Below are positions 2 to 50,206 of a DNA stretch of 60,621 nucleotides, one piece after another. Numbering within the stretch: the stretch's first letter is position 1; each line of letters opens with the position of its first letter. The notes under the pieces are model-generated. The model made no database searches. It saw nothing but the letters and a program-made list of their open reading frames with translations, and was not told the origin of the DNA. The translations under genes and the position numbers were made by a program. The DNA comes from a virus, in IMG/VR virus record IMGVR_UViG_3300029985_000047, positions 1-60,621 of that record, one strand, 5' to 3'.

Positions 2-94
2 AAACTGCAGGGCGGTGAGTTCCGGGCTTGCACATGCACCGCCAAGGAACTGGAAACAGAAGCCGCTAGTATAGCAGAACCAGCAAAGGAGTAG
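2..94 (+). CDS. 3' end of an upstream gene (partial)
   Basis: An open frame enters from the left edge and ends at TAG 92-94, giving about 30 residues with a Cys-x-Cys (ACTCTAKELETEA) and an Ala/Glu-rich end. The next gene's ribosome-binding site (AAGGAG) overlaps this stop, as expected for adjacent genes in one operon. Too little is visible for a function. Confidence 0.45.
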   Translation, partial: KLQGGEFRACTCTAKELETEAASIAEPAKE

Positions 95-99
95 TTGAA

Positions 100-477
100 A
101 TGGCAGAATTCAAGGATTTGGTGGGAGTAACACTCGCGTCCATAGTGGGCGGTGAAGTGGGAAGCGATCGGATCACCTTTGAGGCTCAAGATGGTCGCAC
201 TTGGTGCATGTACCACAGCCAGGATTGCTGCGAAGTAGTTCAGGTTGAGGATATAGCTGGTGATCTGAATGATTTGATTGGAGTGCCAATTACGCAGGCA
301 GAGGAGTCCAGTAATTCAGAAGACCGGAAGCAAGGAGAATCCATGGTGGGTGAGGAGTCATTCACATGGACCTTCTACCGTATAGCTACGGCCAAAGGAC
401 TAGTGGTTATCCGTTGGCTTGGAGAATCCAACGGATACTATTCTGAAAGTGTGGACTTTAAGTCGGTGCATGGATGA
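100..477 (+). CDS. DUF7448-like small phage protein
   Basis: A 125-residue protein. It carries the layout I associate with the phage DUF7448 family: a MYHSQDCCE block near residue 45, then EDIAGDLNDLIG, then WTFYRIAT and IRWLGESNGYYSESVDF at the C-terminus. The family has no established function. The start ATG follows AAGGAG at 8-9 nt. The last 8 nt overlap the next gene, which implies translational coupling. The paired cysteines (CC) with a nearby histidine could bind metal, but this is only inference. Confidence 0.6.
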   Translation: MAEFKDLVGVTLASIVGGEVGSDRITFEAQDGRTWCMYHSQDCCEVVQVEDIAGDLNDLIGVPITQAEESSNSEDRKQGESMVGEESFTWTFYRIATAKGLVVIRWLGESNGYYSESVDFKSVHG

Positions 478-640
478 CCCCTACGCCGTTCTGCTCGTGC
501 GCATGACAGACACCGACACCACCATCCGCAAGCGGTTCCATCAGCTTGCCGAACACCAACACCCGGACCGTGACGGGGCCAACGGCAAGCCCGGCCCGCA
601 GTGGTTCGCCATCGCACAGGAAAGGATTAAGAAGGCGTGA
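470..640 (+). CDS. Truncated J-domain (DnaJ-like) protein
   Basis: About 56 residues starting at ATG 470, which overlaps the previous stop. It begins DDPYAVLLV and holds a degenerate J-domain core, IRKRFHQLAEHQHPDRDG, with the HPD tripeptide needed to stimulate Hsp70 (DnaK) ATPase. The same N-terminal pattern recurs in the longer gene at 9409-9729, which adds an interhelical segment and a DnaJ-type zinc finger; this copy stops right after helix III. It is either a minimal J-protein or a 3'-truncated paralogue. A longer upstream frame exists (ATG 419) but lies within the preceding gene and has no RBS. Confidence 0.6.
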   Translation: MDDPYAVLLVRMTDTDTTIRKRFHQLAEHQHPDRDGANGKPGPQWFAIAQERIKKA

Positions 641-990
641 TTAACCAAGCAGCCGCCCGTCAGTGGGCAGAGGACACATTCGGCATGATGTGCATGGACA
701 AGCATGAGCGGGCCATGCGGTTCTTGGAGGAGGCGTTTGAGGCGGCACAGGCGGCGGGTGTTACCGACAAAGACGCCGTGTGCCTGTGGCGCGTGGTGTA
801 CGACAAGCCTGTGGGCGAGTTGGCGCAGGAGATCGGCGGCGCTCTGCTGACGCTGGCCCTGCTGTCTGAAGGCGCTGGGCTGGACATGGAATGGGCTGGC
901 GACACTGAGTTCCTGCGTGCGCGCACCATGCCGCGCGACTACATAAAGGCCCGCCACGCGGTAAAAGTGGCTGCCGGGGTGGCCCGGTAG
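637..990 (+). CDS. MazG-like nucleotide pyrophosphohydrolase
   Basis: A 117-residue all-alpha protein with GTG start, overlapping the previous stop as GTGA. The segment ERAMRFLEEAFEAAQAAG supplies the EExxE metal-binding motif of the MazG/NTP-PPase superfamily, followed by the typical VYDKPVGELAQEIGG block. These enzymes hydrolyse (d)NTPs to (d)NMP plus PPi; phage versions shape the dNTP pool or lower ppGpp-type signals. Substrate cannot be read from sequence. A second, unrelated-looking member is at 30718-31296. Confidence 0.65.
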   Translation: MINQAAARQWAEDTFGMMCMDKHERAMRFLEEAFEAAQAAGVTDKDAVCLWRVVYDKPVGELAQEIGGALLTLALLSEGAGLDMEWAGDTEFLRARTMPRDYIKARHAVKVAAGVAR

Positions 991-1000
991 GCAAACTTGC

Positions 1001-1034
1001 TATAATGGTGTAGCAGCACTACAAGGAGATGTGC
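1001..1034 (+). promoter_or_regulatory. Promoter and SD-hairpin leader of the beta-helix gene
   Basis: Extended -10 element TGCTATAAT (TATAAT 1001-1006) without a good -35. The leader folds as GCAC (1016-1019) / GTGC (1031-1034) with the Shine-Dalgarno AAGGAG in the 11-nt loop, 5 nt before ATG 1039. It is one of at least nine leaders of this design in the window. Confidence 0.6.
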
Positions 1035-1038
1035 ACAA

Positions 1039-1677
1039 ATGAAAATTGAAGAGATCTACGCAATCCCAGTAGATGGAGACGGATGGCGAATTCTGCCAAA
1101 CGGACACAGACTGAAACTCTCCCACAACGTTTCCGCACCCTATGGAATCAACGAGGCCAGGATCGGCGACGGGGCCAGCATCGGCGACGGGGCCAGGATC
1201 GGCAACGGGGCCAGCATCGGCAACGGGGCCAGCATCGGCAACGGGGCCAGCATCGGCAACTGGGCCAGTATCGGCGACGAGGCCATCATCGGCAGCGGGG
1301 CCAGCATCGGCGACGAGGCCATCATCGGCAGCGGGGCCAGCATCGGCGCCTGGGCCAGCATCGGCAACTGGGCCAGCATCGGCGACGAGGCCATCGTCGG
1401 CAGCGGGGCCAGCATCGGCAACGGGGCCAGCATACCGGTAGACGTGGAATTGAAATTCACACCGCTTGCCGTGCAAGGCACGCGCCATCTTGTAACCAAC
1501 TGCGCGCCGGGTCAAATTAGTATCGGGTGCCAGTTCTTTACCTTTGCTGAGTTTCTTGCCGCCAGCCCAGAGCAGCGCGCTGCGTACCAGACTGCAGCGG
1601 GATACACTCCCACCCAATGCGCAGAATATATCAAAATCGTGGAGTTTGTAATAGCAAATGGTAGTCAGCTGATCTAA
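1039..1677 (+). CDS. Left-handed beta-helix (hexapeptide-repeat) protein
   Basis: A 212-residue protein: residues 1-40 form a small N-terminal region (GDGWRILPNGHRL), residues 41-130 are fifteen perfect hexapeptides of type (S/R/I)IGxGA, which build a five-turn left-handed beta-helix, and residues 131-212 are a helical C-terminal cap (FFTFAEFLAASPEQRAAY, near-end TPTQCAEYIKIVEFV). Classical hexapeptide enzymes are acyltransferases, but no catalytic His or acyl-CoA site stands out, so a structural or ice-binding-like or regulatory role is just as possible. It has its own promoter. Similar proteins occur as unknowns in phages; function is not known. Confidence 0.6.
   Translation: MKIEEIYAIPVDGDGWRILPNGHRLKLSHNVSAPYGINEARIGDGASIGDGARIGNGASIGNGASIGNGASIGNWASIGDEAIIGSGASIGDEAIIGSGASIGAWASIGNWASIGDEAIVGSGASIGNGASIPVDVELKFTPLAVQGTRHLVTNCAPGQISIGCQFFTFAEFLAASPEQRAAYQTAAGYTPTQCAEYIKIVEFVIANGSQLI
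1159..1428 (+). repeat. 18-bp tandem repeat array encoding hexapeptides
   Basis: Fifteen contiguous 18-nt units such as GGGGCCAGCATCGGCAAC, very GC-rich compared with neighbouring genes. Units differ mainly at codons 4-5 of the hexapeptide (NG, DG, DE, SG, NW, AW). The order DE-SG recurs three times, which points to expansion by unequal exchange or slippage in blocks of two or more units. Confidence 0.9.
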
Positions 1678-1810
1678 GGAGTCTACCATGATCACAGGGA
1701 TGCTGTGATAAGCTTACTGAGCCCGGAAAGGCGTTTGATTGGTATGCTTTCTGGACGTGAGCTACTACTACACACGGAGTACGGGCCGTACGTACACAGG
1801 AGAATGAAAC

Positions 1811-2689
1811 ATGACTGAATTGACAGTGGACGAGCTACATGTTAGAGTACAAGACCTCGAGATGGTCTACAAAAGTCATCAGGAGCACTTGGCGGACGAC
1901 GCGAAAGTCATAGACAGTCTCCGGCAGAAGGTAAAAGCTCTCGAACGCCAGGTGGCAAATGAGAAACACATCAATGATGTGCTATCTAGGCAGTATGCTA
2001 AAAAGTCTGAAGAAGTACAGCATATTGCAGCAATTATGCCCTGCACTGTTGTGCAGCCATACAGGGAACTAGTAGAAAATGTTAAGGCGCTTATAAACTC
2101 ACATGAAGAGCTCCGCCAAACTGCAGTAGAGGCCATAGCTGAGCGCGACATGTGGAAGAACTACGCCTTCGATGGCGACTGCGGCGGCGGTAGTGATGGC
2201 AGTGTTCTACCCTATCCAGAGCGCTCAATGCCTAATAGACGGAAGACAGCTATTGAGAGAGGCTTTGAGAAGATTGAGAAACTGCAAGCTAAGCTAGACC
2301 ATGCAAATGCGCACAATGAGTTTCTCACTAGCAGCCTTCAAGCTACAAAGGCAAAGCTGAGCATAGCCGATGGCGTGCTTAACTGGCCGCCAGCCGGCAA
2401 GGCAGGCCTGACAGCTACGCGTGAACAAGTGGACGAGGCTATTTTGAAGACGTTTCGTGAGCATTACTGGCGTGGCGCAGTCGGGACCTTTGAAGAATTT
2501 CGGCGGCACGTAAGCGACTTGCTATTCCCGCCTGCTGTCCCGGTAGACGATGAGGACGTCGCCATTACAGGCAATGGGTTTGATACTGTGATTCTGGTGG
2601 ACCACAAAGAATTTTGCCGTACTCATAGTACGGACAATGCTGTAGAGATTCGTAATGCGCTCAAGGCTGTGAGAAAGGCAAAGAAGTGA
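1811..2689 (+). CDS. Coiled-coil protein of unknown function
   Basis: A 292-residue protein, rich in heptad-like Leu/Val/Ile in residues 5-65 (VDELHVRVQDLEMVY through VKALERQVANEKH) and again at about 155-190 (FEKIEKLQAKLDHAN). The C-terminal third is globular, with FREHYWRGAVGTFEEFRRHV. The start ATG follows AGGAG at about 8 nt. The 133-nt gap before it has no convincing gene. The next gene overlaps by GTGA. No family recognised. Confidence 0.55.
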   Translation: MTELTVDELHVRVQDLEMVYKSHQEHLADDAKVIDSLRQKVKALERQVANEKHINDVLSRQYAKKSEEVQHIAAIMPCTVVQPYRELVENVKALINSHEELRQTAVEAIAERDMWKNYAFDGDCGGGSDGSVLPYPERSMPNRRKTAIERGFEKIEKLQAKLDHANAHNEFLTSSLQATKAKLSIADGVLNWPPAGKAGLTATREQVDEAILKTFREHYWRGAVGTFEEFRRHVSDLLFPPAVPVDDEDVAITGNGFDTVILVDHKEFCRTHSTDNAVEIRNALKAVRKAKK

Positions 2690-3006
2690 TTCCAGATGAT
2701 CTGAAAGCTATTTACGCACAGTCTCAGTTAGACACCAGTATTGGGCAGCTCAATTTAGTGGGAGAGCTTATTGAGCGCGTAGGGAAGGCCGAGCAGTGTC
2801 TAGCTACGCAGAACGCAAAACTTGCTGCAGTTACGCAGTGGCTAAAAGATAACCAACAGGACGTGTTTAGGCGTGGGATTTGGGACGTTATTGTCAAAGC
2901 AGAGAATTCTGTAAAGAAGCAAAGACGCCAGACGGAGCATTGCTGCGCACAAGTGACCGATTGTGACTGCATTTGGCGTGAACCCGAGTTAGGGATGCCA
3001 CGATGA
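2686..3006 (+). CDS. Unknown protein with C-terminal Cys cluster
   Basis: A 106-residue protein with a GTG start overlapping the previous stop. The N-terminal 80 residues look helical; the end carries HCCAQVTDCDCIW, a compact set of five Cys/His residues that could bind a metal. No recognised family. It overlaps the following 48-residue frame by ATGA. Confidence 0.5.
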   Translation: MIPDDLKAIYAQSQLDTSIGQLNLVGELIERVGKAEQCLATQNAKLAAVTQWLKDNQQDVFRRGIWDVIVKAENSVKKQRRQTEHCCAQVTDCDCIWREPELGMPR

Positions 3007-3149
3007 CATTTCTTATAATGACCTTGGCAGCTGTGTGGGAGCAGATTAAGCACCCATGGTGGTCATCTACTCGCTGTGTAGATGCGGTAGAGTTGCGGCG
3101 TGTGTACCGGATGATGCCACCAAAGAAGGAGCGTACAAAGTGCGATTGA
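3003..3149 (+). CDS. Small ORF, 48 residues, unknown
   Basis: Starts ATG at 3003 in an ATGA overlap with the preceding stop and ends TGA 3147-3149. The N-terminus is hydrophobic (MTFLIMTLAAVW) and the C-terminus basic (PPKKERTK). It fills the space between two genes exactly and ends before the rtcB promoter. Function unknown; support is positional only. Confidence 0.4.
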   Translation: MTFLIMTLAAVWEQIKHPWWSSTRCVDAVELRRVYRMMPPKKERTKCD

Positions 3150-3171
3150 TGGCTTTGCAGTCGTGATGAGG

Positions 3172-3177
3172 TATAAT
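3172..3177 (+). promoter_or_regulatory. -10 box placing transcription start at the rtcB GTG
   Basis: TATAAT lies 7 nt before the GTG start codon at 3185. A normal initiation distance (6-8 nt) would start the mRNA at the GTG itself, so the message would be leaderless. No SD sequence is present between the two. A -35 candidate, TTGATG at 3146-3151, has a long 20-nt spacer. Confidence 0.5.
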
Positions 3178-3184
3178 TAAGCTC

Positions 3185-4372
3185 GTGAACATTCTAAGTG
3201 AAAAGGTAGTTGCCTTTGGCGAGCATGATGAGAACACTCGCCAGCAGATTCTCACAGCGGCGCAGGACAAGCGTGTAGTTCGCGCTGCACTTATGCCTGA
3301 TGGGCACTACGGCTACAATGTGCCCATCGGAGGAGTGCTCGCCTACAAAGACGCTATCAGTCCTTCTGGAGTTGGGTTTGATATTGCCTGCGGCAATAAG
3401 GCAGTACGGCTTGATGTGCACGGGTTCGAAACACGCCCGCATATTGCTGCCATTATGGATGAGGTATTCAAGGTCATCAGCTTTGGTGTAGGCCGCAAGA
3501 ATAATGAGAAAGTTGATGCGGCGGTGCTGGACAAGAGCGGCCTGGGGTGGTATCTCGAGTCTACAAAGCCACTTTATGACAAAGCAGCTGCGCAACTTGG
3601 AACAGTGGGCTCAGGCAATCATTATGTGGATATATTCACCGATGAAGCTGACCGTGTTTGGATCGGTGTACACTTTGGCTCGCGTGGATTTGGGCATGGT
3701 ATTGCCACTTGGTTTCTGAAAGCTGCAGGTGCAAGTCAAGATATGGCCGCAGCACCATGCGTACTCGACATCAACAGCGATCTTGGCCAGCAGTACATTC
3801 ATGCTATGAGTCTTGCTGGGCAGTATGCCTATGCTGGGCGTGATTGGGTGTGTGAACGTGTGGCCAAGATTATTGGCGGTAAAGTACTAGAGAGTATCCA
3901 CAACCACCACAACTATGCATGGCTTGAAGAGCACAATGGCGAAGACTTGTGGGTCGTGCGCAAGGGTGCCACACCGGCATATCCTGGGCAGAAGTGCTTT
4001 GTTGGTGGATCACTTGGTGAGCAGTCTGTGATACTTGCGGGCATTGAAAGCACGGAGTCTAGCCTGACGCTCAGTTCGACTGTCCATGGTGCGGGCCGGG
4101 CAATGGGCCGCAAAGAGGCCACTGGTACGTTCGACCGTAAGACCGGAGAATGTAAGCGTCCTGGCAAGGTTACCCAAGAGATGCTGCAAGGCTGGGTAGA
4201 CCGCTCAGGCATTGAGTTGCGGGGAGCAGGCCTGGACGAGAGCACTGACTGCTATAAGCGGCTCGACAGTGTACTAGGCTACGTGTCCAACCAAGTGCGT
4301 ATTTTGCATAGACTGACTCCCATTGGTGTGGCCATGGCTGGAAAAGACACTTTTGACCCGTACAAGGACTGA
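3185..4372 (+). CDS. rtcB: RtcB-type 3'-phosphate RNA ligase
   Basis: A 395-residue protein with the RtcB signature blocks in order: MPDGHYGYNVPIGGV (from residue 37), GVGFDIACGN with the Mn-binding Asp/Cys (about 63-71), GTVGSGNHYVDIF (about 139), VHFGSRGFGHG (about 162), HNHHNYAW and VRKGATPAYPGQ (mid), and STVHGAGRAMGRKEA (about 300). RtcB joins 2',3'-cyclic-phosphate ends to 5'-OH ends using GTP and Mn. In phages it can heal tRNAs cut by host anticodon nucleases. Length fits compact RtcB forms. The GTG start is the only one before residue 37 that keeps the full fold. It is apparently expressed from a leaderless message. Confidence 0.9.
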   Translation: MNILSEKVVAFGEHDENTRQQILTAAQDKRVVRAALMPDGHYGYNVPIGGVLAYKDAISPSGVGFDIACGNKAVRLDVHGFETRPHIAAIMDEVFKVISFGVGRKNNEKVDAAVLDKSGLGWYLESTKPLYDKAAAQLGTVGSGNHYVDIFTDEADRVWIGVHFGSRGFGHGIATWFLKAAGASQDMAAAPCVLDINSDLGQQYIHAMSLAGQYAYAGRDWVCERVAKIIGGKVLESIHNHHNYAWLEEHNGEDLWVVRKGATPAYPGQKCFVGGSLGEQSVILAGIESTESSLTLSSTVHGAGRAMGRKEATGTFDRKTGECKRPGKVTQEMLQGWVDRSGIELRGAGLDESTDCYKRLDSVLGYVSNQVRILHRLTPIGVAMAGKDTFDPYKD

Positions 4373-4383
4373 TGTGGTACAAT
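4353..4383 (+). promoter_or_regulatory. Promoter upstream of the 520-residue gene
   Basis: TTGACC (4353-4358), a 19-nt spacer, and TACAAT (4378-4383). Transcription would start near 4390, past the ATG at 4387, which argues that translation starts at ATG 4402 using AAGGA at 4393-4397. Confidence 0.5.
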
Positions 4384-4401
4384 TAGATGTATAAGGACAC
4401 T

Positions 4402-5964
4402 ATGAAATCCAAAATCTGCAGTACACAGCATGATGTAGACTACTCGGCATTGCTTAGCAGTGTCGTAGAGCACTTCAACACTGTCACTCGTAACCAAGCC
4501 AATCTTTTCACTACTGATATTGACGGAGACAAGCTCTGGCTCTACTACCTGAACAACTTAGACGAAGACATTCGTCAGCAGCATAACTGCCATTGCTGTA
4601 AGAGTTTCATTACTCGTTATGGTGGGCTGGTTGTTATCAATGAAGATGGCACCACTACATCAGCACTGTGGCCAAAGAATGAGACTCTCAGCATCTATGC
4701 AGATGCTTTCTGCGGGTTGAGACTTGTGGCTGAGCAGGCCAAAGTGACTGGGGTGTTCTACGGTAAGACTCCAGTGCTTGGTACGCCGCAGACTGGTACA
4801 TGGTCGCATATTGCAGTTACTGCCAGCAGGTTCCAGAATATGGACCGCTTGCTTATGGCTAGTCAGCACATGGCCGCTACTGTGCAGTCTTACCAAACTG
4901 TGCTAAGCACATTGTTCGACAAGGCCGGTAGCAAAGAGAACCTCGACCAGATGATCCGTGTGTTTGAAGCCGCAGCCTTACCGCGCTCAGAGAAGTTCAT
5001 CGAGCCCATTAAGTGGCTTCGTAAATTGCATGATCGCCCTAAAGGTAAACTAGGTGCTAATGTCCTATGGCGTGAAATGGCAGCTGTACCTGAAGGCTTC
5101 TTGCACCCGCGCGCCTCTGTTGTTTGGCCGTTGTTGGAGACACTACAAGCGGGCGGAGACTTTGAGGATATCAAGCGGCAGTTCATCAAAATGGCAGATC
5201 CGCTCCATTATCAACGTCCACAAGCAGCACCTACAGCTGGCAACATCAAGCAAGCTGAAGAAGTGATCGCCAAACTTGGCATTGCAAAGAGCCTAGAGCG
5301 CCGGTTCGCGCGCCTGGAAGACCTTACTACGAAGGTTTGGTTGCCAAAGGTTTCGGAAGCCCATGTGGAGGATCCTGGCTCCGTCTTTGGGCATCTTAAA
5401 GCTAGGGGCGCCACGCAGAAGAGCCTTCCGCTAGACCTGCCGGCTAAGACCATGACTTGGGAGAAGTTCGTCGACCGCATATTGCCTACAGTGCAGAAGC
5501 TGGAGTTCTATGCACCTAACCGTGGCAACTACTGCGCATTGCTAACGGCGGTGCATGCTGATGCGCCCAATATCATGAAGTGGAGTAATCCTGTATCGTG
5601 GTACGTCTACCACCCTAGAAGCTTCGCGCGGGACTGGGGCTTGTCCTCTATGCTCTGGAAGCAGGTGACAGCCGTAGTAGACACTCCCAACAAGTGGGAC
5701 GGAAAAGACTACCTTGCAGAAGGCATAGTGCTTGTGCTTAAGAACTGTGTAGACCGGCGAAGTGGACAAGGAAATGCATTGTTTCCAGAAAATCTGCGAG
5801 GTGATTTGTACAGTGTACGCTCGACCATCGAAGCGTACAGCAGAAGCGCTGAGATACAAGGCCGCGAAGAAGCCACAGCCTGTGGTTACATGATCCGTAA
5901 AGAGTCTTGCAGTATCGGGCTGCGTGCTGACGGGCAAGTCTACGTGGTGGACAGATGGGAGTAG
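4402..5964 (+). CDS. Conserved phage protein of unknown function, 520 residues
   Basis: A large soluble protein. Near residue 65-85 it has HNCHCCKSFITRYGGLVVI, a Cys/His cluster I have seen at the same place in unannotated phage proteins of similar size that start with a FTTDxDxxxLWxxYL block. The rest is helical with no transmembrane segment. The start is set at ATG 4402 by its RBS and by the position of the promoter; ATG 4387 in the same frame would probably not be transcribed. The last codons overlap a small membrane-protein gene. No function can be assigned. Confidence 0.55.
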   Translation: MKSKICSTQHDVDYSALLSSVVEHFNTVTRNQANLFTTDIDGDKLWLYYLNNLDEDIRQQHNCHCCKSFITRYGGLVVINEDGTTTSALWPKNETLSIYADAFCGLRLVAEQAKVTGVFYGKTPVLGTPQTGTWSHIAVTASRFQNMDRLLMASQHMAATVQSYQTVLSTLFDKAGSKENLDQMIRVFEAAALPRSEKFIEPIKWLRKLHDRPKGKLGANVLWREMAAVPEGFLHPRASVVWPLLETLQAGGDFEDIKRQFIKMADPLHYQRPQAAPTAGNIKQAEEVIAKLGIAKSLERRFARLEDLTTKVWLPKVSEAHVEDPGSVFGHLKARGATQKSLPLDLPAKTMTWEKFVDRILPTVQKLEFYAPNRGNYCALLTAVHADAPNIMKWSNPVSWYVYHPRSFARDWGLSSMLWKQVTAVVDTPNKWDGKDYLAEGIVLVLKNCVDRRSGQGNALFPENLRGDLYSVRSTIEAYSRSAEIQGREEATACGYMIRKESCSIGLRADGQVYVVDRWE

Positions 5965-6095
5965 TTGCTGAAGTTCTCATTGGCGTCTTTTGTCTACTGA
6001 GCCTAGGAGCGTTGTTTCTAGGCCCAGTAAAAGTAGACTGGCATAGTATGGACAAGGATCCTGAAATGAATCCTGGATTGGACGATGATGATTAA
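5955..6095 (+). CDS. Small single-pass membrane protein, 46 residues
   Basis: Starts inside the end of the previous gene (ATG 5955) and overlaps the start of the next. Residues 3-23 (VVAEVLIGVFCLLSLGALFLG) form one clear membrane helix cut here by no charge; the tail ends in four Asp. Function unknown. Confidence 0.45.
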   Translation: MGVVAEVLIGVFCLLSLGALFLGPVKVDWHSMDKDPEMNPGLDDDD

Positions 6096-6909
6096 GATCT
6101 ATAATGACGATTTCAAGCTAAGTCGGTTTAAGTTCTCTGGCGGCGAGTTGCAAGTGCGCGTAGCCGTGGAGGGCCTAGCGCTCGCTCCAGGCAGCGTAAC
6201 CCTCAGTGCTGACCTGCACAGCTCTGACGATATTATGGAGCTTATTCTCACAGTAGACGCTCTACGCCGGGAGCTGCCCGCAGGAACTCCTTTTCATCTT
6301 GTTTGCCCGTACTTGCCTTACGCACGGCAGGATAGAGTATGCGCACCAGGCGAGGCACTGAGCGTCAGTGTGATGACTGATCTCATCAATCTCTGCGGGT
6401 TCCACTCTGTCAAGCTATGGGATGTGCATAGCGACGTCAGCCTCGCATTGCTGCGGCGCGTCATTAATGTGCACCAGAAGGACTTTGTCAGCTTAGTGCA
6501 CTGGGACCCGGGAACTATTTTGGTAGCTCCTGACGCCGGAGCGCGTAAGAAGACGGCCGAAGTAGCGAAGCTTCTGGGACTACAGATGATCACCGCCGAT
6601 AAGACTCGCAGCGTAGAGACAGGCGCCATTACAAGCACTGTGGTGCATTTTGATGGCATACCAGTAGAAGAACTGGCCAAGAAGGACTTTCTCATTGTGG
6701 ACGATATCTGTGACGGCGGCCGGACGTTCATCGAGCTAGCAAAAGTGCTGCGTCCATGGACTACTGGCAAGATTTACCTGTATGTCACGCACGGCATTTT
6801 CAGCAATGGGCTGGACGTATTCAATAGCTTGATTGATGGTGTGTATACGGCCAATCCGTTCCCAAAAGTGGACCTCAATCACAAACTGCTGACGGTGGTG
6901 TCTGCATGA
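6085..6909 (+). CDS. PRPP-synthetase-like kinase (possible ADPR pyrophosphokinase)
   Basis: A 274-residue ribose-phosphate pyrophosphokinase fold. Visible blocks: YLPYARQDR (ATP binding), DVHS (equivalent of DLHS), TADKTR carrying the catalytic-loop Lys and Arg, and VDDICDGGRTF, the pyrophosphate/ribose-phosphate binding loop. Cellular Prs makes PRPP from ribose-5-phosphate and ATP and is usually about 310 residues. In phage NARP1 systems a Prs-like enzyme (Adps) instead pyrophosphorylates ADP-ribose and works with a NAMPT-like partner, which is exactly the partner found two genes downstream. The two activities cannot be separated by eye. It overlaps the HAD gene by ATGA. ATG 6085 has better SD spacing than ATG 6088. 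Confidence 0.8.
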   Translation: MMIKIYNDDFKLSRFKFSGGELQVRVAVEGLALAPGSVTLSADLHSSDDIMELILTVDALRRELPAGTPFHLVCPYLPYARQDRVCAPGEALSVSVMTDLINLCGFHSVKLWDVHSDVSLALLRRVINVHQKDFVSLVHWDPGTILVAPDAGARKKTAEVAKLLGLQMITADKTRSVETGAITSTVVHFDGIPVEELAKKDFLIVDDICDGGRTFIELAKVLRPWTTGKIYLYVTHGIFSNGLDVFNSLIDGVYTANPFPKVDLNHKLLTVVSA

Positions 6910-7325
6910 ATGACCCTTACCTGTATCAAGAACTGTGTTTTAACCGCTTGCTAGCTGAGTATCGCCTGCATAAGCGGCTGATCGTGGCGGTAGACTTTGA
7001 CGATACCGTGTTTGACTTTCACAAGGCTGGATACCAGTATGAAGCCGTACTGCGGTTGCTGCGTCGTTGCACGGCCCTGGGTTTCTACATCACGCTCTTT
7101 ACTTGCAGTGACCCATCAGAGTATGCCAGGCAAATAGCCTACTTGCTTGATTATGGCGTGCTGGTGACGAGCGTGAATGAGAACCCAGTCCAACTGCCAT
7201 TTGGCAATCATGGCAAGCCGTACTACAACATTCTGTTGGATGACCGCGCTGGATTGTGCGCCGCCTATCAAACCCTGGAGAGCGTAGCGACCCAGGCCGA
7301 AGCAGACAAGGAGCACGTCGAATGA
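6906..7325 (+). CDS. HAD-superfamily phosphatase-like protein
   Basis: A 139-residue protein. Motif I is VAVDFDDTVFD at about residue 30 (DxDxT/V type), motif II is the LFTCS segment, and motif IV is ILLDDRAG near residue 112. It is a small cap-less HAD form. Substrate unknown; it sits between the PRPP-synthetase-like and NAMPT-like genes with 4-nt overlaps on both sides, so a role in the same nucleotide/NAD pathway is a fair inference. Confidence 0.7.
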   Translation: MNDPYLYQELCFNRLLAEYRLHKRLIVAVDFDDTVFDFHKAGYQYEAVLRLLRRCTALGFYITLFTCSDPSEYARQIAYLLDYGVLVTSVNENPVQLPFGNHGKPYYNILLDDRAGLCAAYQTLESVATQAEADKEHVE

Positions 7326-8797
7326 ACATCTTTATGCCGCATGCAAAAGACTTCTACAAGAGTGGGCACGTCTTTCAGTATCCTAAAGGAACAGAGTACG
7401 TTTACAGCAATTGGACCTGCCGCAGTGATAAGTGGGCCAGCGTACTACCGGACTTCGCGCATAAGGTGGTGTTCTTCGGCTTGCAGGGAGTTTGCCAGTG
7501 GATGCTGATCGACGATTGGAACACTAGCTTCTTCAGCCAGCCACTTAAGGAAGTAGTAAACAAGTATCGACGTCGTATGGATAAAGCTCTTGGCACTGGC
7601 CGAGTGACCGTAGACCATATCGCTGCGCTTCACGTCTTGGGCTATTTACCTGTGCGCATCAAGGCATTGCCGGAGGGTAGCCGGGTAGATACCCGCGTGC
7701 CAATGTGGACAATCGTCAATACTTTGCCCGAGTTCTTTTGGGTCACCAACTTCTTGGAGACCCAGCTGAGTGCTGAGCTCTGGTTGCCGCTAACCAGTGC
7801 TACTACGGCGTACGAATATCGGCGCTTGTTTGATAAGTACGCCGAGCTTACCGGGGCCGTCAAGGCATTTGTGCCGTGGCAGGGACACGACTTCAGTATG
7901 CGTGGTATGACTGGTATCACTAGCGCGACACAGTCTGGTGCCGCACATTTGCTCAGTTTCACAGGCACAGATACTATCACTGCCATTGACTACTTGGAAG
8001 ACTACTACCACGGAGAGGCGACATTCGTAGGCGGCAGTGTACCTGCCACAGAGCACTCAGTAATGTGCATGGGAGGCGCGGCAGACGAGTTGGAGACATA
8101 CCGACGGCTCATTACTGAGGTCTATCCAGATGGTGTAGTCAGCATCGTCAGTGATACATGGGACTTTTGGCGCGTGCTTACTATCACGCTTAGAAAGCTA
8201 AAGGCGGAGATACTGGAGCGTGACGGCAAAGTGGTTATCAGACCAGATTCAGGTGACCCAGTCAAGATTATCTGTGGTGATCAAGATGCAAAGCCAGGCA
8301 CACCAGAGTACAAAGGCGCTGTACAATGTCTCTGGGAGATTTTTGGCGGTACAGTAACCCACAAGTGCTACGATACACTGGACTCTCACATTGGGCTGAT
8401 CTACGGCGACAGTATAAGTCTTGAACGTGCTCAGGAGATTCTCGCGCGTTTAGAGGCGAAGGGTTTTTCTAGTGATAATATCGTATTCGGTATTGGAAGC
8501 TACACTTACCAACATGTAACGCGCGATACGTTCGGAACGGCTATCAAAGCGACCTGGGGCGCAGTGAACGGAGAACCACGTGAGTTGTTCAAAGATCCTA
8601 AGACTGACAATGGTGTAAAGAAGTCTTTGTGCGGCCTCATTCGTGTAGAATATGAGGATGGACACTATATGGCATATGACCGTCAGGCTCCAGACCAAGA
8701 GCAGGGCGGCCTGCTAGAGCCGGTATTTGAAGACGGCCTACTAGTTAGAAGCCAGTCTTTGCAGGAGATTCGTATGAGGCTACATAGTGCTGGGTAA
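7322..8797 (+). CDS. nadV: Nicotinamide phosphoribosyltransferase-like enzyme (NAMPT / possible Namat)
   Basis: A 491-residue type II phosphoribosyltransferase. It shows the NAMPT layout: DFYKSGHVFQYPKGTEYVYSN cut here to its core at residues 9-28, FFGLQGVCQW, the HDFSMRGMTG stretch, GTDTITAIDY, VPATEHSVMC, SDTWDFWRV and RPDSGDPV. NAMPT makes NMN from nicotinamide and PRPP. In NARP1, the homologous Namat joins nicotinamide to ADPR-PP and gives NAD+ directly. No NMN adenylyltransferase is visible in the window, which slightly favours NARP1. ATG 7322 overlaps the HAD stop; an in-frame upstream extension is inside the HAD gene. Confidence 0.85.
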   Translation: MNIFMPHAKDFYKSGHVFQYPKGTEYVYSNWTCRSDKWASVLPDFAHKVVFFGLQGVCQWMLIDDWNTSFFSQPLKEVVNKYRRRMDKALGTGRVTVDHIAALHVLGYLPVRIKALPEGSRVDTRVPMWTIVNTLPEFFWVTNFLETQLSAELWLPLTSATTAYEYRRLFDKYAELTGAVKAFVPWQGHDFSMRGMTGITSATQSGAAHLLSFTGTDTITAIDYLEDYYHGEATFVGGSVPATEHSVMCMGGAADELETYRRLITEVYPDGVVSIVSDTWDFWRVLTITLRKLKAEILERDGKVVIRPDSGDPVKIICGDQDAKPGTPEYKGAVQCLWEIFGGTVTHKCYDTLDSHIGLIYGDSISLERAQEILARLEAKGFSSDNIVFGIGSYTYQHVTRDTFGTAIKATWGAVNGEPRELFKDPKTDNGVKKSLCGLIRVEYEDGHYMAYDRQAPDQEQGGLLEPVFEDGLLVRSQSLQEIRMRLHSAG

Positions 8798-48808: not shown

Positions 48809-50206
48809 TTAAAGCTGCACATAGACGCCGATAAGCAGACTGACAACTGCTCCCGCCGTGGTAATGGCCGAAATAATCGGCATAGCCTGCCCGGCGGCAC
48901 GTGCGCCAGAGGACTGCTGTGAGTACGGCTGCGACTGGTTCAAGTAACCGAGCGGAATGGCTTGTCCCGAGGTAAGCGAGATACCTGGCACATTAACAGC
49001 GGGCCCAGCCCAGTTAGCACCCGACAAGAAACCGATGCCTGCAAAAGTAGCTCCAACGGCATTAGCCGCCTGGATAAACAAGTGCTGGCCACCGTTAGTC
49101 TGTGGCACGGCGGGCAAGCTAGCTAGTACATTCAGCTCTGCAATCTGCAACTGTGCGACATACATAGCCAAGTAAAGCCACAAGAATGATGGAACACCGC
49201 TGCTCATGAAGCCCGGCTCAAATAGTTGGTATGGGTTGTAGTTGCCGTAGAAGTTGAAGTTAGCTGCCTTAATATTGGTAGCCTGTGTCTCTGTTAGTGG
49301 CTCTGCAGCTATGCCAACTAAGTCTTTATGCGCTACAGTGAAGAAGCTACCAGGTAGGCCAGTATTAAGCCCCATCTCCATACCCATCAATGCCGCGGCG
49401 GCATAGACATTGTTAGGGTACAGACCACTTTGCGTGGTAGAGTAGACCCCAAGCACACGGTACTGCAGTGTCCGCAACTGAAGCGCAATGTTGGCCGCCG
49501 TGCCGTTGGGAATGCCGACAGACGAGGACCATGCATAGTAGCGTGTAGTCTGCCAGTTAGGGTCGGCCCATGCAGCCAGCGCCAAGTTGTCGGCATCAGC
49601 CGGGTTGTTGACTGCGAGCCCATACCACAGTGAACTCGCAGCACGACATGCCTGTGAGGCCTGCAGCAAAGTCTCGCCTACAGCTGTAATGTCTACTGTG
49701 AGGCCTGTACCACTGCCGCCTGTGGTAGCCAGCGCCGTGGCCACAGTGTACGCAGTACCCTGTGTGCCTGCCACAACGCCCAGTGTGAGCACTGCGCCCG
49801 TACCAACGTTGATGGTAAGCACCGTAAGGAAACCATTGGATGCACCGCCTTGCGTGACGCCTACTATATCACCAACCTTGTAATTAGTGCCTGCTGAGCC
49901 TGCGTGTGGAATGGCTGTGGCAATAGCTGTCAGGTCTTGACAACCGATCCAGATGTAGCCAGGTGCTGGTGTCTGTGCGAGGTAGATGTTGGCGGCGATA
50001 TACTCCGGCTGAACGGCCGTGAATCCGTCAGAAAGCATGGCCGCTGTAGTGGCGTACTTGCGCAACCGGGAATTAGCCCCGTAAGAAGGAATGACGGCGC
50101 TAGGGCCGACGAACAGTCCTTGGTTGAAAGAATTGGCCGTTGCGGCCGTCGGAGCTACTGTAACAGAAATGTTTACTATGTCCGACAAAGGAAGTGGAAT
50201 ACTCAT
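48809..50206 (-). CDS. Tail sheath protein (DUF3383)
   Basis: A 465-residue protein. N-terminal SDIVNISVTVAPTAATANSF with LFVGPSAVIP, then YATTAAMLSDGF and EYIAANIYLAQ; C-terminal region with MGMEMGLNTGLPGSFFTVAH, ADNLALAAW mid, and LGYLNQSQPY. DUF3383 sheaths contract to drive the tube. Residues about 100-182 hold an inserted Gly-rich beta module (GTNYKVGDIVGVTQGGASNG, TTGGSGTGLTV), probably exposed on the sheath surface. Confidence 0.9.
   Translation of the reverse strand: MSIPLPLSDIVNISVTVAPTAATANSFNQGLFVGPSAVIPSYGANSRLRKYATTAAMLSDGFTAVQPEYIAANIYLAQTPAPGYIWIGCQDLTAIATAIPHAGSAGTNYKVGDIVGVTQGGASNGFLTVLTINVGTGAVLTLGVVAGTQGTAYTVATALATTGGSGTGLTVDITAVGETLLQASQACRAASSLWYGLAVNNPADADNLALAAWADPNWQTTRYYAWSSSVGIPNGTAANIALQLRTLQYRVLGVYSTTQSGLYPNNVYAAAALMGMEMGLNTGLPGSFFTVAHKDLVGIAAEPLTETQATNIKAANFNFYGNYNPYQLFEPGFMSSGVPSFLWLYLAMYVAQLQIAELNVLASLPAVPQTNGGQHLFIQAANAVGATFAGIGFLSGANWAGPAVNVPGISLTSGQAIPLGYLNQSQPYSQQSSGARAAGQAMPIISAITTAGAVVSLLIGVYVQL

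What the first reader, a model, noticed from the sequence alone, without database searches (positions are those of the whole stretch)
6085..8797. PRPP-synthetase-like, HAD and NAMPT-like operon: likely NAD+ reconstitution (NARP1-like) against NAD-depleting defence
Three genes overlap by 4 nt each: a Prs-like kinase, a HAD phosphatase and a NAMPT-like transferase. Published phage NARP1 pairs a Prs-like Adps with a NAMPT-like Namat to rebuild NAD+ from ADP-ribose and nicotinamide; NARP2 uses NAMPT with an NMN adenylyltransferase. No adenylyltransferase is seen in the window, so NARP1 is the better match. The HAD in the middle is not part of the described two-enzyme pathway and may be a new accessory.
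Basis: partly seen in the sequence, partly recalled or inferred. Interest (0 to 1): 0.75.

Follow-up and report, generated by a model that had tools for sequence, protein, structure and literature searches.

The report
Phage NAD+ repair operon, added phosphatase
This phage carries the two-enzyme pathway (NARP1) that is known to rebuild NAD+ after bacterial immunity destroys it, plus a small phosphatase gene that travels with that pathway in many unrelated phages and bacteria and seems to be an undescribed third part.

Summary
In detail: three genes (6085-6909, 6906-7325, 7322-8797, + strand) overlap by 4 nt (ATGA) at both joints. The outer pair is NARP1, not ordinary Prs/NAMPT. The NAMPT-like protein's best solved match is the verified SPbetaL1 Namat. 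It has the Namat adenine clamp (GSYTYQHVTRD; Lys37-Trp38) and the whole catalytic core, and it falls on the Namat side of a fully supported split. The kinase likewise falls with Adps, apart from Prs. No NMN adenylyltransferase or Nudix domain is in the 60.6-kb record, so NARP2 does not fit.

The middle gene is a capless HAD phosphatase with intact catalytic residues (model pLDDT 95, nearest fold BT_0820). Searched on its own, this HAD family lies within 6 kb of NARP1 genes in 42 of 55 non-redundant viral clusters and 45 of 55 bacterial loci. In 103 of 103 called loci it is on the same strand, mostly touching or overlapping, in four gene orders. It is therefore a recurrent accessory, and I found no description of it in the papers I could read. 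Its substrate is inferred: most likely a phosphorylated ADP-ribose turned back into ADPR for Adps, with pyrophosphate or AMP next.

In passing: a predicted nicotinic-acid version of NARP1 in about 50 phage loci.

The parts
6085..6909 (+). Adps-type kinase (ADP-ribose pyrophosphate synthetase), 274 aa; motifs ARQDR, HSDV, PDAGARKK, KTRSVETGAI, DDICDGGRTF
   Evidence: motifs shared with verified SPbetaL1 Adps, not with Prs; tree
6906..6909 (+). ATGA overlap of Adps stop and HAD start
6906..7325 (+). capless HAD-type phosphatase, 139 aa, recurrent NARP1 accessory
   Evidence: association
6993..7007 (+). HAD motif I DFDDT (nucleophile D30, general acid D32)
7215..7244 (+). HAD motif III/IV region: K104 to D112-D113 (KPYYNILLDD)
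7322..7325 (+). ATGA overlap of HAD stop and Namat start
7322..8797 (+). Namat (nicotinamide ADP-ribose transferase), about 490 aa
7430..7435 (+). selectivity-clamp loop residues K37-W38 (SPbetaL1 R40 position; Lys followed by an aromatic)
   Evidence: rule from PMC12774641
8495..8527 (+). selectivity-clamp helix signature GSYTYQHVTRD (residues 392-402)
   Evidence: consensus from PMC12774641

Best explanation
The three genes are one translationally coupled NARP1 operon with a dedicated accessory phosphatase. Step 1 (inferred by homology to verified enzymes): the 6085-6909 protein (Adps) moves pyrophosphate from ATP to the free ribose of ADP-ribose (ADPR), the product left when immune NADases cleave NAD+, giving ADPR-PP. 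Step 2 (same basis): the 7322-8797 protein (Namat) joins ADPR-PP and nicotinamide into NAD+, so no NMN adenylyltransferase is needed. Shown here: sequence, signature, phylogeny and operon structure of both enzymes. Step 3 (association shown, chemistry inferred): the HAD protein is an active phosphatase working in the same pathway. My leading reading, about 35-40% on its own, is that it removes the phosphate from phosphorylated ADPR (ADPR-1''-phosphate made by NAD+ phosphorylases or by loss of phosphate from ADPR-PP; ADPR-2'-phosphate from NADP+ cleavage) and so returns ADPR that Adps can use.
For: Namat: best PDB match 9W5X/9W5W (SPbetaL1 Namat, E 1e-166, 558 bits) against about 200 bits for human and Xanthomonas Nampt (identity of 9W5X from PMC12774641). 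Clamp helix GSYTYQHVTRD; Nampt references have GGALLQK. Loop K37-W38 fits the published rule that after Lys the next residue stacks. Core residues D10, Y12, F191, R194, D217, A242, R307, D309 kept; Ser at the two positions where Nampt has Gly (S192, S393). Tree: Namat with window against seven Nampt, support 100. Adps: motifs of verified Adps, tree split from Prs 100. 76 of the 80 closest Namat loci have an Adps homologue beside Namat; in the other four the contig starts at or just upstream of Namat. HAD: 42/55 viral clusters and 45/55 bacterial loci have NARP1-type genes within 6 kb; 103/103 same strand, 68 overlapping, 89 within 50 nt; orders A-H-N, N-H-A, A-N-H, H-A-N; presence needs at least 7 and order at least 16 changes on the Namat tree. 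Precedent: RyDEP inside a NARP1 operon makes ADPR for Adps (PMC13232231). NARP1 loci also carry Macro, NADAR and ADP-ribosylglycohydrolase genes, which release ADPR. RES toxins make ADPR-1''-P (PMC9503650).
Against: Clamp position 7 is His, not the usual Tyr/Phe (14 of 189 Namat rows share His). No activity was tested. HAD substrate: the same HAD family also occurs with NadM-Nudix/NAMPT/Prs in Mucilaginibacter, with NadD-NadE and in a few radical-SAM contexts, so a substrate common to NAD synthesis in general (PPi, AMP, NADP) fits as well. The window's nearest Namat relatives lack the HAD, so it is not required for NARP1.
Confidence: 0.8

Rival explanations
1. NARP1 with the HAD as a pulling enzyme: it hydrolyses pyrophosphate released by Namat, or AMP released by Adps, and so drives reversible steps forward.
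For: PPi and AMP are made by every pathway seen beside this HAD family: NARP1, NAMPT/Prs/NadM, NadD-NadE. One member has a weak hit to HAD-IG 5'-nucleotidase.
Against: Hosts have abundant inorganic pyrophosphatase (general knowledge), so the gain is unclear; no family-level similarity to a known HAD pyrophosphatase was found.
Confidence: 0.25
2. The HAD is a NADP(H) or dinucleotide phosphatase, or a metabolite-repair enzyme for break-down products of ADPR-PP/PRPP, that tops up NAD+ or clears dead-end products.
For: Would fit all NAD contexts. A weak profile and fold relative, 9IQW, is titled a phage D-arabinose 1,5-diphosphate phosphatase, a pentose-1-phosphate substrate.
Against: 9IQW match is weak (E 0.03, Z 6.2) and tied with unrelated HADs; nothing shows NADP preference.
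Confidence: 0.2
3. The HAD is an RNA or DNA end-repair phosphatase that belongs with the upstream RtcB ligase (3185-4372), and its place between the NARP1 genes is incidental.
For: RtcB lies 1.7 kb upstream. Stand-alone HAD phosphatases act in phage RNA repair (PMC7824862, PMC9503650). T4 Pnkp phosphatase is among the fold matches at Z 7.
Against: Recurrence with NARP1, not with RtcB, in unrelated phages and bacteria.
Confidence: 0.1
4. Ordinary PRPP synthetase plus NAMPT: ribose 5-phosphate to PRPP to NMN, finished by a host adenylyltransferase (NARP2-like).
For: Namat keeps PRPP-dependent NMN synthesis in vitro (PMC12774641); family models name the proteins ribose-phosphate diphosphokinase and nicotinate phosphoribosyltransferase.
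Against: Clamp signature, Namat-specific residues and both trees; no NMNAT in the record.
Confidence: 0.05

Closest known systems
NARP1 (Adps + Namat), verified in Bacillus phage SPbetaL1 (9W5X/9W5W), described in PMC12774641; ICP1 NrsAB in PMC11559045
   Same: Same two enzymes, same order (Adps upstream), clamp signature, catalytic residues, clade
   Different: A HAD gene sits between them with ATGA overlaps; SPbetaL1 and ICP1 have none; clamp position 7 is His
NARP1 plus RyDEP, mycobacteriophage DyoEdafos (PMC13232231)
   Same: A third gene inserted in the NARP1 operon; there it feeds ADPR to Adps
   Different: RyDEP is an RyR-domain glycosidase of cyclic ADPR; here the third gene is a HAD phosphatase with no sequence similarity found
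NARP2 / NadV-NadM salvage (NAMPT + NMN adenylyltransferase)
   Same: NAMPT-like fold and nicotinamide as substrate
   Different: No NMNAT or Nudix in the record; protein is Namat-type, not Nampt-type
BT0820-family HAD phosphatase (2OBB; NCBIfam NF046079)
   Same: Capless HAD fold, DxD and DDR motifs; 36 of 48 family members hit NF046079
   Different: The window protein itself gives no NF046079 hit at E 0.01; activity of BT_0820 is not known to me

Membership tests
NARP1 | Namat homologue with clamp-helix signature GSX-T/S-X-Q/N-X-N/V-TRD (aromatic at 3 and 7) | tested here: met
   GSYTYQHVTRD; position 7 is His, shared by 14 of 189 rows; Nampt has GGALLQK
NARP1 | clamp-loop stacking residue (Arg, or Lys/Tyr followed by a stacking residue) | tested here: met
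   K37 then W38 aligned to SPbetaL1 R40
NARP1 | conserved transferase core (SPbetaL1 F189, R192, D215, R306, D308, catalytic His) | tested here: met
   all identical
NARP1 | phylogenetic placement with Namat, not Nampt | tested here: met
   support 100 split, 67-row tree
NARP1 | Adps partner, distinct from Prs, beside namat | tested here: met
   motifs and tree split from Prs 100; adjacent in the window
NARP1 | ADPR + ATP to ADPR-PP, then NAD+ in vitro; rescue from NAD-depleting defence | not testable with these tools
   needs enzyme and plaque assays
NARP2 | Nampt-type transferase plus NMN adenylyltransferase | tested here: not met
   Namat clade; no PF01467 in the record, although the record may be a fragment
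Canonical ribose-phosphate pyrophosphokinase | DLHAxQIQ, DKRRP and DTGGT motifs and placement with Prs | tested here: not met
   window has DVHSDV, DKTRSVETG, DGGRT; Adps side of split
HAD phosphatase, capless | motifs DxDxT, K, DD and Rossmannoid HAD fold | tested here: met
   2OBB Z 11.8 over 110 residues
BT0820 family (NF046079) | match to the family model | tested here: inconclusive
   36/48 relatives match with best E 7e-10, window member none at E 0.01
RyDEP-type NARP1 accessory | RyR domain PF02026 | tested here: not met
   no Pfam hit for P0002

The most novel reading that the evidence does not exclude
The HAD is a phospho-ADP-ribose phosphatase that widens NARP1 from hydrolytic NADases to NAD+ phosphorylases and NADP+ cleavage. 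It would define a three-gene NARP1 type spread across crAss-like phages, jumbo phages and chromosomes of Bacillota and Bacteroidota, next to a predicted nicotinic-acid branch of the same pathway (nicotinamidase-Adps-Namat-like-NadE).
Probability: 0.3. Interest if true: 0.75.

Novelty: new variant of a known kind. Interest (0 to 1): 0.6.

Why it matters
NARP1 is a recent counter-immunity pathway. A third enzyme that keeps rejoining it in unrelated genomes points to an NAD+ break-down product, or a by-product, that two enzymes cannot deal with. Finding the HAD substrate would show which form of NAD+ damage phages meet in nature, and would add a usable genomic marker (phrog_1238, now named phosphoheptose isomerase) for this branch.

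Tried and rejected
Osterman et al. 2024, the original NARP1 paper, is not held, so I cannot exclude that it shows this HAD. Searches for HAD with NARP1 found no description; the Namat paper has no occurrence of HAD or phosphatase. Papers on BT0820 and on AfhF/9IQW were not found. A viral scan with P0001 alone returned only the same phage. Megablast of 25 kb of the window against named phages gave nothing, so host and taxon stay unknown. Promoter and terminator scans were at or below shuffle background. NARP2 and plain Prs/NAMPT were considered and rejected. Foldseek gave one hit with E below 0.001 (2OBB); the other fold rows (Z about 7) are common HAD architecture and say nothing about substrate.

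Full report
What is there. Three ORFs on the + strand, 6085-6909, 6906-7325 and 7322-8797, overlap by ATGA at both joints. The window is a complete IMG/VR record of 60,621 bp. It has a tail sheath (48809-50206, -), head maturation protease, family-A DNA polymerase and helicase, so it is a contractile-tailed phage; no near relative was found among named phages. Two other IMG/VR contigs carry the same three genes at 100% identity.

The transferase is Namat. The best solved match of P0003 is 9W5X/9W5W at 558 bits. PMC12774641 deposits these as SPbetaL1 Namat with nicotinamide and NAD+. A second phage entry, 9KE8, scores 450 bits, and human and Xanthomonas Nampt about 200. That paper defines Namat by a selectivity clamp: a helix with consensus GSX-T/S-X-Q/N-X-N/V-TRD and a loop residue that stacks on adenine. 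The window reads GSYTYQHVTRD, while Nampt references read GGALLQK. Position 3 is aromatic; position 7 is His, a minority state found in 14 of 189 homologues. In the loop, SPbetaL1 Arg40 aligns with Lys37 followed by Trp38, the published Lys-then-stacker pattern. All named core residues are kept, and two positions that are Gly in Nampt are Ser as in Namat. In a 67-row tree the seven Nampt rows (human type, Xanthomonas, three phages, two Mucilaginibacter) separate from all Namat rows, window included, with support 100.

The kinase is Adps. Its active-site motifs match verified SPbetaL1 Adps and other Adps (HSDV, PDAGAxK, KxRxxxTGxI, GGxTF) and not E. coli Prs (DLHAEQIQ, PDIGGVVR, DKRRP, DTGGTL). 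A 42-row tree separates Prs from Adps plus window with support 100. Among the 80 closest Namat loci 76 have an Adps homologue beside Namat; in the remaining four the contig starts at or just upstream of Namat. The record has no CTP_transf_like/NMNAT and no Nudix domain. So NARP1 is the right filing; NARP2 and plain Prs/NAMPT are not. What cannot be tested here is the chemistry and the anti-defence effect; for homologues both are published (PMC12774641, PMC11559045).

The HAD. P0002 has D30, D32, T34, K104 and D112-D113. Most are at least 90% conserved in 48 relatives and K104 and D113 are invariant, so it should be catalytically active. AlphaFold2 gives pLDDT 95.3. The best fold match is BT_0820 (2OBB, Z 11.8, 110 residues); everything else is near Z 7, the common HAD background. 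Two relatives in HAD-only contexts have lost a catalytic Asp (L143, L140).

Is the HAD part of NARP1? I searched the HAD family on its own. tblastn of P0002 in named phages returned 26 records. The seven NARP1-linked ones inspected are: cr126_1, cr111_1 and DAC15 (Namat-HAD-Adps), Phass-1 (Adps-Namat-HAD), VPT02 (Adps-HAD-Namat) and two Lak jumbo phages (HAD next to Adps, Namat elsewhere in the genome); an eighth, LR756501, has no adjacent pair. In IMG/VR, 58 of 80 HAD loci have both Adps and Namat within 6 kb and 4 have one. After clustering at 80% identity this is 42 of 55 clusters; two of the 13 negatives are cut by contig ends. In bacterial genomes 45 of 55 HAD loci have such genes (Cohnella, Paenibacillus, Flavobacteriaceae, Saprospiraceae and others); three of these, in Mucilaginibacter, are Nampt-type. 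For scale, only 1,939 of 50,697 phage records carry any P0003-like gene anywhere. Where both were called, HAD and NARP1 gene are on the same strand in 103 of 103 loci, with 68 overlapping and 89 within 50 nt. Gene order varies. On the Namat tree HAD presence needs at least 7 changes and order at least 16 (sampling not random). The window's own nearest Namat relatives lack HAD, also elsewhere in their contigs. The association is therefore asymmetric: NARP1 often lacks the HAD, but the HAD is seldom found without NAD-synthesis genes. One bias to note: the IMG/VR query alignment was seeded mostly with NARP1-linked HADs; the tblastn search was not.

How it may work. Enzymes that recur beside NARP1 include Macro (16 loci), NADAR (13) and ADP-ribosylglycohydrolase (6), with the ADPR-sensing regulator NrtR in bacteria. 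All turn on free ADPR. RyDEP, another insert in a NARP1 operon, was shown to make ADPR for Adps (PMC13232231). RES-family toxins split NAD+ with phosphate and give ADPR-1''-phosphate (PMC9503650), which should not be usable by Adps because its 1''-OH is blocked (inference). A phosphatase would restore it. The same HAD family also sits with NadM-Nudix, NAMPT and Prs in Mucilaginibacter and with NadD-NadE. So substrates common to all NAD routes, such as PPi, AMP or NADP, remain possible. I give the ADPR-phosphate reading about 35-40%.

Side result. In the two HAD loci with Namat-like proteins that lack the nicotinamide-binding Asp (L084 Phass-1, L160), the operon also has nicotinamidase and NadE. 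A scan with these two found about 50 loci with Ala or Ser at that position and Ser at the A242 position. Of non-redundant clusters 26 of 27 have nicotinamidase and/or NadE nearby, against 0 of 32 clusters with Asp/Glu (Fisher p 7e-16; Pfam Isochorismatase and NAD_synthase). This predicts a deamidated NARP1: nicotinamide to nicotinic acid, then ADPR-PP plus nicotinic acid to NaAD, then NadE to NAD+. The window keeps Asp217 and belongs to the nicotinamide branch.

Verdict. I call it a new variant of a known kind. The main limit on the novelty claim is that the original NARP1 paper could not be read here.

Noticed in passing
L084 (Phass-1) 10-4340; L160 2771-7175; L242-L285, L288, L289, L295, L298, L303, L306, L309: Predicted nicotinic-acid NARP1: nicotinamidase, Adps, Namat-like protein with the nicotinamide-binding Asp changed to Ala/Ser, and NadE. 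Co-segregation 26/27 against 0/32 non-redundant clusters, p 7e-16.
   Followed up: partly
L202 312-6384; L211; L216 (Mucilaginibacter chromosomes): The same HAD family near a NadM-Nudix, NAMPT (Nampt-type GGALLQK) and Prs cluster; L202 has a SIR2-TPR gene read as two ORFs (3693-4025, 4032-5372) between Prs and HAD.
   Followed up: partly
NARP1 loci, e.g. L019, L060, L187, L192, L203: NARP1 neighbourhoods often hold Macro, NADAR, ADP-ribosylglycohydrolase or nucleoside deoxyribosyltransferase-like genes, and NrtR in bacteria.
   Followed up: partly
window 3185-4372: RtcB-type RNA ligase (PF01139, 7e-68) upstream of the operon, suggesting an RNA-repair and counter-defence region; a similar RtcB lies near NARP1 in L044, L061, L111 and L234.
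   Followed up: no
window 4387-5964: 525-aa protein of unknown function (phrog_1735, 3e-97) directly upstream of Adps; a homologue lies near NARP1 in Aeromonas phage phiA8-29 (L072).
   Followed up: no
L143 5953-6393; L140 6001-6411: HAD relatives in HAD-only contexts with a lost catalytic Asp (NFDST, DFNNT), possibly inactive or changed in function.
   Followed up: no
L102, L110, L113, L114, L181: A HAD subgroup sits between two radical-SAM genes instead of NARP1 genes.
   Followed up: no
L204 1763-4073; L126 5935-9047: HAD next to NadD and NadE in a Clostridia MAG, and near NadE in a viral contig.
   Followed up: partly
L089 (CAKLQF020000015.1): A record named Acinetobacter phage looks partly bacterial (AraC regulator, TauE) and holds a NARP1 pair followed by a NadM-Nudix gene.
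   Followed up: no
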